64,000 nucleotides of DNA, taken from NCBI GenBank assembly GCA_001464355.1, contig LNEU01000033.1:372001-436000 (forward strand), given 5' to 3'. The notes under the pieces are model-generated. The model ran no database searches and was not told the DNA's origin. It saw nothing but the letters and a program-made list of their open reading frames with translations. Source of the stretch: Burkholderiales bacterium Ga0077544 (GTDB lineage: Bacteria; Pseudomonadota; Gammaproteobacteria; Burkholderiales; Burkholderiaceae_D). A program made the translations under genes and the position numbers. Below, in pieces: positions 31,681-63,986 of the stretch. How positions within the stretch are numbered: position 1 is the first letter of the stretch; every line of letters starts with the position of its first letter.

Positions 31681-32634
31681 ATGAAAATCATATTTGCAGG
31701 TACGCCTGAATTTGCGGCAGTTGCATTGACTGCCTTGCACGCGGCCGGCCACGAGATCACGCTGGTATTAACGCAACCTGATAGGCCCGCAGGTCGTGGC
31801 ATGCAACTGCATGCGTCCGCAGTCAAACAGTTCGCCGTGGCACACAATATTCCGGTGGCGCAGCCTGTCTCCTTGCGGCTCGACGGTAAATTTTCCGAGG
31901 TCGCACAGGAAGCGCATGACTTGCTGCGTTCCACGCCGCACGATGTGATGGTGGTCGCGGCGTATGGTTTGATCCTGCCGCAATCGGTGCTGGATATTCC
32001 CCCTCTAGGCTGCCTGAACATTCACGCTTCATTGTTGCCGCGCTGGCGCGGGGCCGCGCCTATTCATAGAGCGATTGAAGTCGGCGATGTGGAAACCGGC
32101 GTCACCATCATGCAGATGGAATTGGCTTTGGATACCGGTCCTATGTTGTTGATGGAACGCTTGCCGATTGCGGCTGACGATACCACCGCAACTTTGCACG
32201 ATAAGCTGGCCAAGCTAGGTGGCGAAATGATCGTCAATACCTTGCGACAATTGGAACAAGACGGTTTGACTGCAACGCCGCAGCCAGAAGCTGGCGCTAA
32301 CTACGCGGCGAAAATTGCGAAGGAAGAAGCAACACTTGACCTTACGCAGCCTGCGCAAGAACTGGCGCGCAAGATACGCGCCTTTAATCCATTTCCTGGC
32401 GCGATGGGAATCTGCAATGGCACACCGGTCAAGTTCTGGCATGCCGAAGCAGTGGAGTCTTCCAGTCACTGGCAAGCTGGCCAGGTTATTTCTGCCAATG
32501 CGCATGACGGCGTCGTGATTGCCTGCGGCAATGGTGCCCTGCGCGTGACAGAATTGCAAAAGCCGGGCGGCAAACGTTTGCCAGCCGCAGAATTCATCAA
32601 GGGCTTCCCTCTGGAAGAGCAGCGTTTCGATTGA
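31681..32634 (+). CDS. fmt: Methionyl-tRNA formyltransferase
   Basis: 317 residues. It formylates initiator Met-tRNA using 10-formyl-THF. The N-terminal domain has [13 protein letters not shown], the [14 protein letters not shown] active-site loop (Asn-His-Asp triad region CLNIHAS) and the following LDTGPML. The C-terminal OB-fold domain includes FNPFPGAM. The downstream neighbour is metH rather than the common rsmB, which lies about 12 kb away. Confidence 0.97.
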
Positions 32635-32687
32635 TTTCTCATGCTCGACGCCAGCGGTGTTGCATTTCGCAAACCCTTGATTTCACG

Positions 32688-32693
32688 TATAAT
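32688..32693 (+). promoter_or_regulatory. -10 element for the metH leader
   Basis: Perfect TATAAT eight bases before the first base of the riboswitch, placing the transcript start at about 32700. The -35 (about TTTCGC) is poor. Confidence 0.6.
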
Positions 32694-32700
32694 TTTTATT

Positions 32701-32789
32701 GCGCCGATTTGATTGAACAAGTCAAAACCAGCTTGCGGGCGCCAGAATAAATTCTCAGAGAATTTGTTCTAAAAATACTGCTAAAGCGG
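32701..32789 (+). ncRNA. SAM-II riboswitch, expanded variant, upstream of metH
   Basis: The SAM-II (SAM_alpha) conserved segments occur in order. GCGCCGATTTG (32701-32711) begins the aptamer, with GCGCC pairing GGCGC at 32738-32742 (P1). Then come AGCTTGC (32730-32736), AATAAA (32746-32751) and GCTAAAGCG (32780-32788). The same blocks recur before metX. Compared with that copy, the first loop has about 13 extra bases able to form TTTGATTG/CAAGTCAAA, and the second loop about 24 extra bases able to form AATTCTC/GAGAATT. Binding SAM should lower metH expression. Confidence 0.85.
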
Positions 32790-32797
32790 CGCTTGGT

Positions 32798-32829
32798 AAC
32801 CCGGTCCCGTTTTTACAGACCGGGTTTTT
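32798..32829 (+). terminator. Intrinsic terminator behind the metH riboswitch
   Basis: Stem AACCCGGTC (32798-32806) / GACCGGGTT (32818-32826) with a T-run to 32829, lying between the aptamer and the metH start. It is a natural expression platform for control by transcription termination. Confidence 0.85.
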
Positions 32830-32872
32830 GCATTCATGCATGGCAACGATAACCACCACTAAAGACTTCACG

Positions 32873-35800
32873 ATGAAACGCGACGCTATTTCCCCTACCG
32901 AAACTCTCTTGCGCGACTTGATGGCGCGCCGCATCCTGATCCTGGATGGCGCAATGGGGACCATGATTCAGCAATACAAGCTGACGGAAGAAGATTATCG
33001 CGGTACGCGTTTCGCCGATCTGGTGGCGGCTGGTATTAAAGTCCCGGCGGGCAGAGAGTTGTTCGTCAAAGGCAATAACGAATTGCTGTCCCTGACGCGT
33101 CCTGATGTTATCAGCGCGATCCACGAGGAATATCTGGCGGCTGGTGCTGATCTGATCGAGAGTAATACCTTCGGCGCGACGACGGTGGCGCAGGACGATT
33201 ACCACATGGGCCACCTGGCTTATGAAATGAACGTAGCGTCGGCGCGGTTGGCGCGTGCGGCATGCGACAAGTATTCGACACCGGACAAGCCGCGCTTCGT
33301 CGCCGGCGCGTTGGGACCTACGCCAAAGACCGCATCGATTTCGCCGGACGTGAATGACCCTGCTGCGCGTAACGTCACCTTTGATCAACTGGTTGCCGCA
33401 TACCTGGATCAGACGCGCGCACTTGTCGAAGGCGGCGCTGATGTGCTGCTGGTCGAAACCATTTTCGATACCTTGAATTGCAAAGCGGCCTTGTTCGCGA
33501 TTGATCAATTCTTTGAAGAGTCCGGCAAGCGTTTGCCTATCATGATTTCCGGTACGGTGACCGATGCGTCGGGACGTATTTTGTCCGGACAAACCGTTCC
33601 CGCTTTCTGGCATTCGATCCGTCATGCCAAGCCGCTGACCGTCGGTTTGAACTGTGCGCTCGGTGCTGCGTTGATGCGTCCATATGCAGAAGAATTGTCG
33701 AAGATTGCCGACACCTACGTTTGCATTTATCCGAATGCCGGCTTGCCGAATCCGATGAGTGATACCGGCTTTGATGAAACGCCGGATGTGACTTCATCGT
33801 TGCTGAAAGATTTTGCAGAGAGCGGTTTCGTCAATATTGCCGGTGGTTGCTGTGGCACTACACCCGACCATATTCGCGCAATTGCGGAAACAGTAAAGAC
33901 GATCGAGCCGCGTCTGGTGCCATCGGTAGCGCCCAACATGAAATTGTCTGGCCTGGAGCCATTCGTGATCGACGATCAATCATTGTTCGTCAACGTCGGT
34001 GAACGCACCAACGTTACCGGCTCCAAAGCATTCGCACGCCTGATCATCAACGAGCAATACGATGAAGCCTTGGCCGTCGCACGCCAGCAAGTCGAGAACG
34101 GTGCGCAAGTCATCGACATCAATATGGATGAGGCGATGCTCGATTCGCAAGCTGCGATGTCGCGCTTCCTGAATCTGGTGGCGTCCGAGCCTGATATTGC
34201 GCGCGTGCCCATCATGATCGATTCATCGAAATGGTCCGTCATCGAAGCCGGTTTGAAATGCGTGCAGGGCAAGGCGATCGTCAACTCGATCTCGATGAAA
34301 GAGGGCGAAGAGAAATTCCTGCATGAAGCGAAGTTGTGCCGCCGCTACGGCGCGGCCGTGATTGTCATGGCCTTCGATGAAAAAGGCCAGGCTGATACGT
34401 TTGAGCGCAAGATCGAGATTTGCGAACGTGCATACAACTTGCTGATCAAGGAAGTCGATTTCCCGCCGGAAGACATCATTTTCGATCCGAATATTTTCGC
34501 GATCGCAACTGGTATCGAAGAACACAATAATTACGCCGTCGACTTCATCAATTCCGTACGCTGGATTAAAGAAAATCTGCCGCACGCGAAAATCAGCGGC
34601 GGTGTCTCGAACGTCAGCTTCAGCTTCCGCGGCAACGATCCTGCGCGTGAAGCGATACACACCGTGTTCCTGTATCACGCGATCAAGGCCGGCATGACGA
34701 TGGGTATCGTCAACGCCGGTATGGTTGGTGTATATGACAATCTGCCTGCAGAGTTGAAAGAACGGGTCGAAGACGTTGTGCTGAATCGTCGCGAAGATGC
34801 AACCGAACGCATGATCGAGATCGCCTCGACCCTCAAGGCCGGCGACAAGAAGGAAGAAGCCACGCTTGAATGGCGCAGTGGCACTGTGCAGCAACGTCTG
34901 GCACATGCGCTGGTACAAGGCATCACGCAATGGATAGTCGAAGACACCGAAGAAGCACGCCAGGAATTACTGGCTAACGGCGGTCGTCCTATTCATGTGA
35001 TCGAAGGTCCATTGATGGATGGCATGAATATCGTCGGCGATCTGTTCGGTCAGGGAAAAATGTTTTTGCCGCAGGTCGTTAAATCGGCCCGTGTAATGAA
35101 GCAGGCGGTCGCCCATCTGATCCCGTTCATCGAAGAAGAGAAACGTTTGCTGCAAGAGCAGACCGGTATCGTCAGCAAACCTAAGGGCAAGATCGTCATT
35201 GCCACGGTCAAAGGCGACGTGCATGACATCGGCAAGAATATCGTGTCGGTCGTCCTGCAATGCAATAACTTCGAAGTCGTTAACATGGGCGTGATGGTGC
35301 CGTGTTCGGAAATTCTCGCGAAAGCGAAGGAAGAGAACGCGGACATCATCGGTCTGTCCGGTTTGATCACGCCTTCGCTGGAAGAAATGGCTTACGTTGC
35401 GAAGGAAATGCAGCGTGACGAATACTTCCGTGGTTTGAAAATGCCTTTGCTGATTGGTGGCGCGACCACCAGCCGTGCGCATACCGCAGTCAAGATTGCA
35501 CACAATTATGATGGCCCCGTTGTCTATGTGCCGGATGCATCACGTTCGGTATCGGTTGCACAATCATTGCTGACGCCCGAGCATCGTGATGCCTACATCG
35601 CCGAGATCGCGACCGATTACGAACGCATACGCGAACAGCACGCGAATAAAAAAGCTACGCCTATGTTGAGCCTGGCCGATGCGCGCAAGAACCGCATGAT
35701 TGTGCCCTTCGACGGCGCTGGCAAACCGGTCAAGCCAAAGTTTATCGGCCGGCGCGTCTTCAAAAACGTCGACCTGGCAACGATCGCGCAATACATAGAC

Positions 35801-36649
35801 TGGGGCCCGTTCTTCCAGACCTGGGACCTGGCCGGCCCTTATCCTGCGATCCTGACTGATGAGGTAGTTGGTGATGCGGCAACCAAGGTGTTTGCCGAAG
35901 GTCAGGCTTTGTTGAAGAAAGTCATTGACGGACGGTGGCTGACGGCCAATGGCGTGATCGCGCTTTTGCCGGCGAATACGGTGAATGATGACGACATCGA
36001 AATTTATACCGATGAAACACGCAGCAAGGTTGCCTTTACGTATTACGGTTTGCGTCAGCAGACCGTCAAACCGGTGATTGACGGCGTCGCGCGGCCGAAT
36101 CAATGTCTGGCTGATTTCATCGCACCGAAATCATCCGGCGTGGCGGATTACATAGGCTTGTTTGCCGTTACCGCGGGTCTGGGGATTGAAAAATACGAAA
36201 AGCGTTTTGAAGATGCACACGACGATTACTCATCGATCATGTTGAAGTCGCTGGCGGATCGTTTGGCCGAAGCATTTGCCGAACATTTGCATGAGCGTGT
36301 GCGCAAGGATTTGTGGGGTTATGCCAGCGATGAGCACTTAAGCAACGCAGCCCTGATCAAGGAAGAATATGCGGGAATACGCCCTGCTCCCGGCTATCCT
36401 GCTTGTCCCGAACACACGGTCAAAGCCGATATGTTCAAGGTCTTGCAGGCGGAAGAAATCGGCATGATGCTGACCGATTCATTTGCGATGTTCCCGGGTG
36501 CCGCCGTGTCAGGCTTTTATTTCGCCCACCCGGAAGCGAAATACTTTGTGGTTGGCAAGGTCGGCAACGATCAGGTCAGTGATATGGTTGAACGCCGCGG
36601 TGCATCGAAGGAAGATGTCGAGCGCTGGTTGGCACCGAATCTGTCTTGA
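32873..36649 (+). CDS. metH: Cobalamin-dependent methionine synthase
   Basis: 1258 residues from this ATG, close to full-length MetH. Four modules are visible: homocysteine-binding ([11 protein letters not shown]; zinc cysteines in [11 protein letters not shown]), methyltetrahydrofolate-binding ([26 protein letters not shown]), cobalamin-binding ([13 protein letters not shown] with the DxHxxG cobalt ligand; [14 protein letters not shown]), and the SAM-dependent reactivation domain ([12 protein letters not shown]). ATG at 32873 is chosen because an earlier in-frame ATG (32840) lies too close to the leader terminator; the ribosome site is weak for both. It is under the SAM-II leader. Confidence 0.97.
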
Positions 36650-62603: not shown

Positions 62604-62632
62604 TTGACGGCGACGGGCGACTTGTTTATTCT
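62604..62632 (+). promoter_or_regulatory. Sigma-70 promoter of metX
   Basis: TTGACG (62604-62609), 17-base spacer, TATTCT (62627-62632). The start would fall at about 62639, immediately before the riboswitch. Confidence 0.65.
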
Positions 62633-62640
62633 TACGCCAT

Positions 62641-62692
62641 GGCGCCGATTTGACATCAGCTTGCGGGCGCATAATAAATACGGCTAAAGCGT
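62641..62692 (+). ncRNA. SAM-II riboswitch upstream of metX
   Basis: A compact SAM-II (SAM_alpha) aptamer. GCGCCGATTTG (62642-62652) begins it, with GCGCC pairing GGCGC at 62666-62670 (P1). AGCTTGC (62658-62664), AATAAA (62673-62678) and GCTAAAGCG (62683-62691) follow in the family order. Bases of the first loop probably pair with the segment after GCTAAA to form the pseudoknot. GGCTAAA can instead pair with TTTAGCC at 62713-62719, the left side of the terminator, giving a simple SAM-dependent off-switch. Confidence 0.92.
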
Positions 62693-62715
62693 GCTCGCAA
62701 TCGAGTTTCGAATTT

Positions 62716-62749
62716 AGCCCGCCAAGCTGACCGCTTTTCGGGCTTTTTT
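62716..62749 (+). terminator. Intrinsic terminator behind the metX riboswitch
   Basis: Stem AGCCCG (62716-62721) / CGGGCT (62739-62744), with an inner AAGC/GCTT, followed by a T-run. Its left arm overlaps TTTAGCC, which can pair with the riboswitch GGCTAAA, so the two structures exclude each other. Confidence 0.9.
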
Positions 62750-62828: not shown

Positions 62829-63986
62829 ATGACCTCTCTCGGAATCGTTGCACCGCAATCCATGTTTTTTTCAACGCCGCTGCCTTTGCAGAGCGGTGCG
62901 GAATTGTGCGATTACACGCTGGTGTATGAAACTTATGGCACCTTGAATGCCGACCATTCGAATGCGGTACTGGTTTGTCACGCATTGAACGCCTCGCATC
63001 ATGTCGCGGGAAGTTACAGTGAAGATGCCAGCACCAGAGGCTGGTGGGACAATATGGTCGGTCCCGGCAAGGCACTGGATACGAATAAATACTTTGTTAT
63101 CGGCGTCAATAACCTCGGTTCCTGCTTCGGTTCGACCGGGCCGATGCACACCAATCCGGCGACCGGCAAACCGTATGGCGCGCGCTTCCCTGTCGTAACG
63201 GTGGAAGACTGGGTGCAATCGCAAGCACGTCTGGCTGATGCCTTGGGAATTCAGCAATTCGCTGCAGTGATGGGCGGTTCGCTGGGTGGTATGCAGGCGC
63301 TGGCGTGGAGCATTCTGTTTCCCGAGCGCTTGCGTCATTGCATCGTGATTGCCTCGACGCCAAAATTGACGGCACAAAATATTGCGTTCGATGATGTGGC
63401 CCGCCAGGCAATTTTGACTGATCCTGATTATCACGGTGGCGATTTTTACGAGCATGGCGTGGTACCGAAGAATGGCTTGCGCGTCGCGCGCATGCTGGGT
63501 CACATTACTTATTTGTCGGACGACGACATGGCCGTCAAATTCGGCCGCGATCTGCGTTCAGGCGCGTACCAATTCGGCTTTGGTATCGACTTTGAAATTG
63601 AATCGTACCTGCGCTATCAGGGCGACAAGTTCTCCGAATACTTTGACGCAAATACCTATTTGCTGATTACCAAGGCGCTCGATTACTTTGATCCGGCCAA
63701 AGACTTTGGCGGCGACCTGACCAAGACCTTGTCGAATACACGTGCAGAATTTTTGTTGGTGTCGTTCTCTACCGATTGGCGTTTTGCGCCAGAGCGCAGC
63801 CATGAAATAGTGCAGGCATTGGTCAACAACAAGCGTACGGTCACTTATGCGGAAATCGATGCGCCCCATGGTCACGACGCCTTCTTGCTCGACGATCAGC
63901 GGTACATGAATGTGGTAAGTGCGTATTTTGCGCGGGCCTACAAGGAAATCGATGGTGGCAGTTTGAAAGCAGGAGCACGCGCATGA
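62829..63986 (+). CDS. metX: Homoserine O-acyltransferase MetX
   Basis: 385 residues, alpha/beta-hydrolase-type acyltransferase. It activates homoserine with an acyl group from acyl-CoA for methionine synthesis; members are acetyl- or succinyl-transferases and the donor is not resolved here. The nucleophile is S151 in [26 protein letters not shown] and the late His motif APHGHDAFL are typical. It is under the SAM-II leader. The next gene (metW) starts at its stop (ATGA overlap). Confidence 0.96.

What the first reader, a model, noticed from the sequence alone, without database searches (positions are those of the whole stretch)
32701..32829. Expanded SAM-II riboswitch variant before metH
Seen: the same core blocks as before metX (GCGCCGATTTG, AGCTTGCGGGCGC, AATAAA, GCTAAAGCG), but with about 13 and 24 extra bases in the two loops, each able to fold into its own hairpin, then an intrinsic terminator. 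Known: SAM-II aptamers are usually very compact and best described in Alphaproteobacteria. Inference: a loop-expanded SAM-II that controls methionine synthase by transcription termination. The inserts sit where they could alter pseudoknot folding speed or ligand affinity.
Basis: partly seen in the sequence, partly recalled or inferred. Interest (0 to 1): 0.85.

Follow-up and report, generated by a model that had tools for sequence, protein, structure and literature searches.

The report
Hairpin-expanded SAM-II riboswitch before metH
The start of the methionine-synthase messenger RNA in this Herminiimonas-like bacterium carries a known type of SAM-sensing RNA switch that has grown two extra hairpins, a form also found in many of its relatives but missed by the standard RNA-family models.

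Summary
At 32701-32829 lies a complete SAM-II core with two inserts relative to the metX copy at 62642 (L1 19 vs 6 nt, L3 37 vs 12), then a terminator, then metH. Rfam misses it: RF00521 scores 10.2 bits here and 27.5 at metX (cut-off 36), although some compact copies with the same core in the order reach 41.7-52.5. In relatives both inserts mostly fold as hairpins of unrelated sequence at fixed places. The L3 hairpin starts 0-2 nt after P1 in 82 of 84 elements and shows compensatory changes; it sits where SAM-V carries P3, a helix reported absent from SAM-II. The L1 hairpin replaces the turn before P2. The expansion is not specific to metH: 36 of 50 metX elements sampled have both inserts. 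The doubly expanded pattern was found in 4 of 10 family genomes and 1 of 290 others of the order. Best reading: a transcriptional SAM-II OFF switch with two capping hairpins. In metX the core probably pairs with the terminator arm as antiterminator; in metH the P2 3' strand may do so with the terminator loop (weaker support). SAM binding is untested. New variant of a known kind.

The parts
32688..32693 (+). -10 box TATAAT; expected transcription start near P1
   Evidence: TTCGCA-16-TATAAT, 10 of 12; CGTATAATTT also seen in several related metH leaders. Start site inferred, not measured
32701..32705 (+). P1 5' strand GCGCC
   Evidence: pairs with 32738-32742
32706..32711 (+). GATTTG, the strand expected in the P2 major groove (ligand pocket)
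   Evidence: role by comparison with SAM-V/SAM-II structures (and recalled knowledge)
32709..32725 (+). L1 insert hairpin: TTGATT 32709-32714 with AGTCAA 32720-32725 (one more pair outside it in some folds)
32728..32736 (+). P2 5' strand CCAGCTTGC
32738..32742 (+). P1 3' strand GGCGC
32744..32770 (+). L3 insert hairpin (SAM-V-P3-like): 12 pairs, 32744-32755 with 32759-32770, loop CAG
   Evidence: positional conservation; covariation in relatives
32771..32779 (+). A-rich strand AAAAATACT leading to P2 3' strand
   Evidence: AAAT within the last 8 nt of L3 in 97 of 108 elements
32780..32789 (+). P2 3' strand GCTAAAGCGG; AAAGCGG (32783-32789) is also the proposed antiterminator strand
32798..32829 (+). 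intrinsic terminator: arms 32798-32806 / 32818-32826, T tract 32825-32829; CCGTTTTTA 32807-32815 can pair with the AAAGCGG strand
32873..36649 (+). metH, methionine synthase (another in-frame ATG at 32840)
   Evidence: NF007024 2119 bits (cut-off 1497)
62642..62691 (+). compact SAM-II core before metX, in the same window
62717..62744 (+). metX terminator region; GCCCGCCAAGCTG 62717-62729 can pair with the core TCAGCTTGCGGGC as antiterminator
   Evidence: -24.4 vs -10.8 kcal/mol, 0 of 2000 shuffles as low; pairing also in the folds, which as whole folds are no better than shuffles (47 and 33 of 200 as low)
62829..63986 (+). metX, homoserine O-succinyltransferase type
   Evidence: NF047916 677 bits (cut-off 560)

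Best explanation
[quoted passage not shown] Transcription starts next to P1. P1, the L1 hairpin and the L3 hairpin fold as each emerges. Without SAM the 3' strand of pseudoknot helix P2 (AAAGCGG) pairs with the upper arm and loop of the terminator (CCGTTTT), so RNA polymerase reads on into metH. When SAM is abundant it locks the P2 pseudoknot, takes that strand away, the terminator forms and metH is shut down. The two hairpins sit at the outer ends of the coaxial P2-P1 stack: the L3 hairpin at the open end of P1, like P3 of SAM-V, and the L1 hairpin at the far end of P2. They probably speed or stabilise co-transcriptional folding rather than contact the ligand. Shown here: core identity with SAM-II, hairpins and their conservation as structure, terminator, gene context. 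Inferred: SAM binding, OFF direction, antiterminator, 3D placement and role of the hairpins.
For: Compact elements with the same core in other families of the order score 52.5, 44.3 and 41.7 bits for RF00521; RF00521 matches at E<=0.01 in 69 of 150 order genomes, 26 over the cut-off, 0 of 14 control genomes. L1 inserts (11 nt or more, folded with the UUG before them): 77 elements, mean z -2.4, 45 of 77 at p<=0.05 against 300 mononucleotide shuffles each; L3 inserts (18 nt or more): 84 elements, mean z -2.6, 56 of 84. L3 hairpins begin 0-2 nt after P1 in 82 of 84 and end 7-13 nt before GCTAAA in 83 of 84; native arms fold to -10.3 kcal/mol, swapped arms to -5.4. In 13 alignable metX relatives all both-side changes fall in the L3 helix: 3 pairs, 7 cells (cells: 1 of 500 shuffles as high); covariation score 0.115 vs 0.077, 0 of 500. 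The outermost P2 pair is C-G in 39 of 56 metH and U-A in 34 of 50 metX elements. Terminator-like hairpin in 98 of 108. 75 of 77 elements present in loci found by DNA pattern precede metX or metH. Folds of the growing leader form P1, then the L1 hairpin, the L3 hairpin and AAAGCGG-CCGTTTT. SAM-V carries P3 at the same place (PMC6061858, passages).
Against: No Rfam family reaches its cut-off, and the metH leader is not among the 13 RF00521 matches up to E 10 in its own genome. P1 and the inner P2 pairs do not vary in the family set, partly because my patterns demanded them, so they give no covariation. The metH L1 stem varies on one side only (0 pairs changed on both sides; all five whole-structure measures no better than shuffles). 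In one search the number of both-side pairs (79 of 500 shuffles as high) and of pair types (273 of 500) are not beyond chance. Outer pairs of the metH L1 stem use UUG of GATTTG, which the bound triplex should need. The full-length minimum-energy fold pairs the P1 5' strand with a downstream GGCGC instead of the P1 3' strand (the program cannot draw pseudoknots). The metH antiterminator has p 0.065 in the window itself and p<=0.05 in 14 of 32 L1-long relatives. The window metX leader shows the same P2-strand complementarity (p 0.03), although metX elements as a group do not (0 of 33). No chance control was run for the terminator count. Close relatives such as H. fonticola lack the aptamer before metH yet keep the terminator hairpin.
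Confidence: 0.8

Rival explanations
1. A SAM-II aptamer with the same ligand, whose inserts are drift: loop ends that tolerate anything, with no role in folding or affinity (compatible with the rest of the best explanation).
For: Insert sequence and length vary widely (L3 12-71 nt in the set, 153 nt in L023); compact forms persist in metH of Undibacterium and in the window's own metX; 28 of 84 L3 and 32 of 77 L1 inserts do not beat 95% of shuffles.
Against: More inserts fold well than chance gives (56 of 84 and 45 of 77 at p<=0.05), the L3 helix starts at a fixed distance from P1 and covaries. That argues for selection for a hairpin as such.
Confidence: 0.3
2. The element is a SAM-II relative that has changed its ligand, for example to SAH or another methionine-cycle compound, because metH is a methyl-cycle gene.
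For: Changed specificity in riboswitch variants is documented for SAM-I turning to spermidine (PMC10853860, passages).
Against: In that case the binding core mutated; here the core letters equal those of compact SAM-II members over Rfam's cut-off, and the same expanded form precedes metX.
Confidence: 0.05
3. It belongs to SAM-V or is a SAM-II/SAM-V intermediate rather than SAM-II proper.
For: A stem-loop directly 3' of P1 followed by an A-rich strand is the SAM-V P3 arrangement (PMC6061858, passages).
Against: No SAM-V family among the 6 matches up to E 10; the core is the betaproteobacterial SAM-II core; a terminator precedes the gene, whereas SAM-V acts on translation. Convergence is simpler.
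Confidence: 0.05
4. The leader is a decayed, non-binding SAM-II remnant; regulation is by the terminator alone or by another factor.
For: At least 12 of 26 aptamer-less metH loci outside the Methylophilales clade keep both the -10 box and a CCCGG terminator, so the hairpin may have a role without the aptamer.
Against: The window core has no deviation from the core of its relatives, and its two hairpins have 6 and 12 pairs.
Confidence: 0.06

Closest known systems
SAM-II riboswitch (Rfam RF00521 SAM_alpha)
   Same: P1, GATTTG, GCTTGC, GCTAAAG, H-type pseudoknot, terminator, methionine genes; the core equals that of compact members in the order scoring up to 52.5 bits
   Different: two extra hairpins; scores 10.2 bits over 32761-32805 only, below the cut-off of 36; gene is metH
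metXZ element of Betaproteobacteria (Leyn 2014, PMC4239095; abstract passages and section 10 read)
   Same: conserved regions with a pseudoknot of regions 1-4 and 2-6, terminator downstream, before metX; the authors speculated on an antiterminator involving GC-rich regions 3 and 4
   Different: not identified as SAM-II in the text read; reported before metX and metZ, not metH; its figures with the alignment were not available to me
SAM-V riboswitch (PMC6061858, passages read)
   Same: stem-loop P3 directly after the P1 3' strand, then adenines in the P1 minor groove; core nearly superimposable on SAM-II
   Different: that paper states P3 is absent in SAM-II; SAM-V is translational and marine; no SAM-V match here
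SAM-II long loops (RF01726, PMC2864571, passages read)
   Same: SAM-II core with longer loops (by name and table entry)
   Different: listed for Bacteroidetes and marine sequences; 13.7 bits here against a cut-off of 44, over 32752-32794 only; details lie in an additional file I could not open
RF02424 Bp2_287, 'Burkholderia sRNA' (PMC3521395, passages read)
   Same: its homologues were reported upstream of methionine genes (metX, metZ named in the figure legend)
   Different: matches the opposite strand of these leaders, all below its cut-off, so it reads as the reverse complement of this riboswitch

Membership tests
SAM-II (RF00521) | conserved core GATTTG / GCTTGC / GCTAAAG with P1 and P2 pseudoknot | tested here: met
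   core letters and 5 (P1) + 8 (P2) pairs present in the window
SAM-II (RF00521) | covariance-model score at or above 36 bits | tested here: not met
   10.2 bits at metH, 27.5 at metX; compact relatives with the same core 41.7-52.5. The failure goes mainly with the inserts, but the compact Undibacterium leader L053 also had no match at E<=0.01
SAM-II (RF00521) | upstream of methionine-pathway genes | tested here: met
   metH NF007024 and MetX NF047916; 75 of 77 elements in pattern-found loci before metX or metH
SAM-II (RF00521) | binds SAM and rejects SAH | not testable with these tools
   needs in-line probing or calorimetry
SAM-II (RF00521) | terminator or ribosome-site expression platform | tested here: met
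   terminator in the window and terminator-like hairpin in 54 of 56 metH elements
SAM-II long loops (RF01726) | covariance-model score at or above 44 bits | tested here: not met
   13.7 bits, E 5.3
SAM-V | covariance-model match | tested here: not met
   no SAM-V family among the matches up to E 10
SAM-V | P3 stem-loop between P1 3' strand and the A-rich strand | tested here: met
   L3 hairpin 32744-32770; 82 of 84 elements start it 0-2 nt after P1. Likely convergent
SAM-V | translational control through P2a and the Shine-Dalgarno sequence | tested here: not met
   a terminator lies between the aptamer and the start codon
metXZ element (Leyn 2014) | six conserved regions, pseudoknot and downstream terminator before metX or metZ | tested here: inconclusive
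   the topology fits the text but the published alignment could not be seen

The most novel reading that the evidence does not exclude
In this family SAM-II has independently gained the P3 stem-loop that was thought to separate SAM-V from SAM-II, plus a hitherto undescribed L1 hairpin whose UUGA-UCAA stem in metH competes with the triplex strand that holds SAM. The L1 hairpin would then itself be a ligand-responsive switch element, and metX and metH would use one aptamer with two different antiterminators (core strand versus P2 3' strand).
Probability: 0.3. Interest if true: 0.68.

Novelty: new variant of a known kind. Interest (0 to 1): 0.5.

Why it matters
SAM-II is a very compact pseudoknot riboswitch and a model for folding studies. 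A natural series of compact, singly and doubly expanded forms with one core, sometimes two forms in one genome as here, lets the effect of peripheral hairpins on pseudoknot folding and ligand affinity be measured directly. It shows that Rfam misses members of SAM-II in a bacterial family where they are common, adds metH to its likely targets, and narrows the structural gap between SAM-II and SAM-V.

Tried and rejected
Rejected: chance resemblance. Rejected: an insert specific to metH; metX leaders of other genera carry both inserts.

One search showed a full core with a 153-nt L3 insert that my 110-nt limit had hidden. carry the wrong label; one search is corrected. No direct evidence of loss remains: presence and absence on the metH tree need at least 9 changes, 6 forced by well-supported branches, direction open.

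Weak or negative: A2 gave no both-side changes in P1, P2 or the metH L1 stem. The L3 stem could not be aligned across genera, so it was parsed per sequence. The core-terminator pairing for metX depends on how the terminator is cut: 25 of 34 at p<=0.05 with the whole 5' half, 11 of 33 when trimmed to CCCG. For metH it is 6 of 49, or 0 of 32 L1-long and 7 of 15 L1-compact. The metH P2-strand hypothesis came from the window's own fold and was then tested on relatives: 14 of 32 L1-long, 5 of 15 L1-compact, metX 0 of 33. Among the named metH loci, 8 of 18 distinct aptamer-bearing and 1 of 10 distinct aptamer-less terminators pass. The metX leader as a whole folds no better than shuffles. The papers (passages only) added nothing on this element.

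Rows dropped: 8 of 116 parsed entries lacked a GCGCC P1 or were overlapping misreads. Identical elements were counted once. Alignment A1 was discarded because three rows were on the wrong strand. From the pattern hits, whose list was itself cut short, I fetched a hand-picked part. Core conservation within the set is partly by construction of my patterns, and relatives share ancestry, so the p values are not independent.

Literature: ten searches. None of the listings or passages I read describes extra hairpins in SAM-II or SAM-II before metH; subscription papers, preprints and supplements were not searchable.

Full report
What is there. Upstream lies an ORF (31681-32634; fmt by recall, not searched), then 238 nt, then metH (32873-36649; NF007024, 2119 bits against a cut-off of 1497). 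The leader has a -10 box at 32688-32693 and, from 32701, P1 5' strand GCGCC, GATTTG, an L1 insert, P2 5' strand CCAGCTTGC, P1 3' strand GGCGC, an L3 insert that forms a 12-pair hairpin with loop CAG, an A-rich strand, P2 3' strand GCTAAAGCGG, and an intrinsic terminator at 32798-32829. A compact version with the same blocks precedes metX at 62642. L1 is 19 nt here and 6 at metX; L3 is 37 and 12.

Rfam. No family reaches its cut-off anywhere in the window. With permissive settings RF00521 gives 10.2 bits and RF01726 13.7 at metH, and RF00521 27.5 at metX, which is the best of 13 matches up to E 10 in the window's genome; the metH leader is not among them. RF00521 matches at E<=0.01 in 69 of 150 genomes of the order, over the cut-off in 26 and in none of 14 controls. 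Its best order hit, L210, before an ORF that looks like metX by eye, scores 52.5 bits and has the same core as the window. Doubly expanded leaders were not found: 0 of 5 loci at E<=5 (L163 there is the same leader as L023) and 0 of 4 at E<=0.01 (L042, L129, L189, L194). So the failure of the model goes mainly with the inserts. It is not only that: the compact Undibacterium leader L053, with GATTGC for GCTTGC, also gave no match at E<=0.01, and the window's metX stays under the cut-off.

Relatives. By gene and loop length (L1 11 nt or more, L3 18 nt or more) these are: metH with both inserts 38, compact 11, L3 only 6, L1 only 1; metX with both 36, compact 10, L3 only 4; unassigned gene, L1 only, 2. 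The patterns required the core, so core conservation inside this set is not independent evidence, and the loci are a hand-picked part of a cut list. Of 77 elements present in pattern-found loci, 49 precede metX, 26 metH and 2 neither. The strict core pattern occurs in 206 of 392 family genomes. The doubly expanded pattern occurs in 4 of 10 family genomes and in 1 of 290 genomes of other families of the order. Named relatives with the metH element include Oxalicibacterium, Noviherbaspirillum, Paucimonas and Undibacterium, which points to Oxalobacteraceae (recalled taxonomy).

The inserts are hairpins. Against mononucleotide shuffles, 45 of 77 L1 inserts and 56 of 84 L3 inserts fold better than 95%; the rest do not. 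The L3 helix begins 0-2 nt after P1 in 82 of 84 and ends 7-13 nt before GCTAAA in 83 of 84. There are 42 different combinations of the outermost pairs. Native arms give -10.3 kcal/mol on average, arms swapped between elements -5.4. In 13 alignable metX relatives the L3 helix has 3 pairs changed on both sides (79 of 500 shuffles as high) in 7 cells (1 of 500), further pair types 8 (273 of 500), and a covariation score of 0.115 against 0.077 (0 of 500). The metH L1 stem is paired in 93.6% of cells but varies on one side only. L1 inserts of metX leaders have quite different sequences, for example GGCTGCC...GGCAGCC or TGGT...ACCA stems. L3 can reach 153 nt (L023).

Structure by comparison. In SAM-V a stem-loop P3 follows the P1 3' strand, adenines after it lie in the P1 minor groove, and a 3-nt turn links the third strand to P2; the same paper states that P3 is absent in SAM-II (PMC6061858, passages). 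The L3 hairpin and the A-rich strand after it reproduce that layout, and the L1 hairpin takes the place of the turn. Both should therefore cap the ends of the P2-P1 stack; no 3D model was made. Outer pairs of the metH L1 stem use UUG of GATTTG, which the bound triplex should need. Either only the inner pairs exist in the bound state or the stem belongs to the SAM-free state; this is open.

Switching. Terminator-like hairpins follow 98 of 108 elements: 54 of 56 metH, 44 of 50 metX, 0 of 2 unassigned (no chance control). In metX leaders the L1/P1 3' core pairs with the terminator 5' half: 25 of 34 at p<=0.05, mean -17.3 against -9.8 kcal/mol; trimmed to CCCG, 11 of 33. The window's own metX gives -24.4 against -10.8, 0 of 2000 shuffles. 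This agrees with the antiterminator that Leyn 2014 speculated on (PMC4239095, section 10). In metH leaders that pairing is weak (6 of 49; 0 of 32 L1-long, 7 of 15 L1-compact). When the window's metH leader is folded up to the terminator loop, P1, both hairpins and a new helix AAAGCGG-CCGTTTT form. Tested on relatives, the P2 3' strand matches the terminator loop at p<=0.05 in 14 of 32 L1-long and 5 of 15 L1-compact metH leaders and in 0 of 33 metX leaders, and in 8 of 18 aptamer-bearing against 1 of 10 aptamer-less metH terminators. In the window itself p is 0.065, and the window metX shows 0.03 for the same strand, so this step is plausible but not shown. In the full-length fold the P1 5' strand pairs with a downstream GGCGC instead, which may be a further alternative state.

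Prior knowledge. SAM-II was defined in Alphaproteobacteria, with Bordetella among the organisms of a figure legend (PMC1273637, passages). Terminator-linked SAM-II in alpha- and beta-Proteobacteria was noted in 2007 (PMC2258182, passages). Leyn 2014 reported RF00521 only in Rhizobiales and Rhodobacterales and described the metXZ element separately. The metZ SAM-II leader of Sinorhizobium was predicted to terminate transcription on SAM binding, and its short RNA rises under high-SAM conditions (PMC9373788, abstract and passages). What appears new is that the metX element of this family and the metH leader share one SAM-II core, that it is widely elaborated with hairpins in both loops in this family, and that metH is a likely target. 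Ten library searches turned up no such description in what I read.

Verdict. The finding is real and mostly correctly read: a new variant of a known riboswitch class, with a clear experimental handle. Interest 0.5. Confidence was lowered from 0.82 to 0.80 on checking, because the compact L053 miss and the alternative P1 pairing count against the reading.

Noticed in passing
window 62619-62748 (-), 32667-32830 (-); L211:1479-1598 (+), L217:1483-1601 (-): Rfam RF02424 Bp2_287, a 'Burkholderia sRNA', matches the strand opposite to SAM-II leaders (26.4, 15.8, 32.6 and 37.1 bits, all below its cut-off of 70); its consensus holds the reverse complement of the SAM-II core, so the family looks mis-stranded.
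   Followed up: partly
L217:1501-1573 and 2916-2994: In a genome of another family of the order a SAM-II element (41.7 bits) precedes an ORF that looks like metK (named by eye), with an SAH riboswitch further downstream.
   Followed up: no
L203, elements around 131-195 and 1158-1221 (genome G036): Two near-copies of a SAM-II-like element with an L1 insert only and a hairpin downstream lie about 1 kb apart with no metX or metH match behind them; possibly stand-alone small RNAs.
   Followed up: partly
L010, L011, L018, L022, L024, L028, L029, L030, L040, L044, L047, L051 upstream of metH: At least 12 of 26 aptamer-less metH loci outside the Methylophilales clade keep both the -10 box and the CCCGG terminator hairpin; what the hairpin does without an aptamer is unexplained.
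   Followed up: partly
L023:1232-1435: A SAM-II aptamer with a 153-nt folded insert in L3, closed by GGG/CCC next to P1, the largest expansion seen.
   Followed up: partly
L013:1232-1296, L019:1260-1319, L042:1060-1123, L046:1138-1200: RF02278 Betaproteobacteria toxic small RNA lies upstream of metH in four of the relatives scanned.
   Followed up: no
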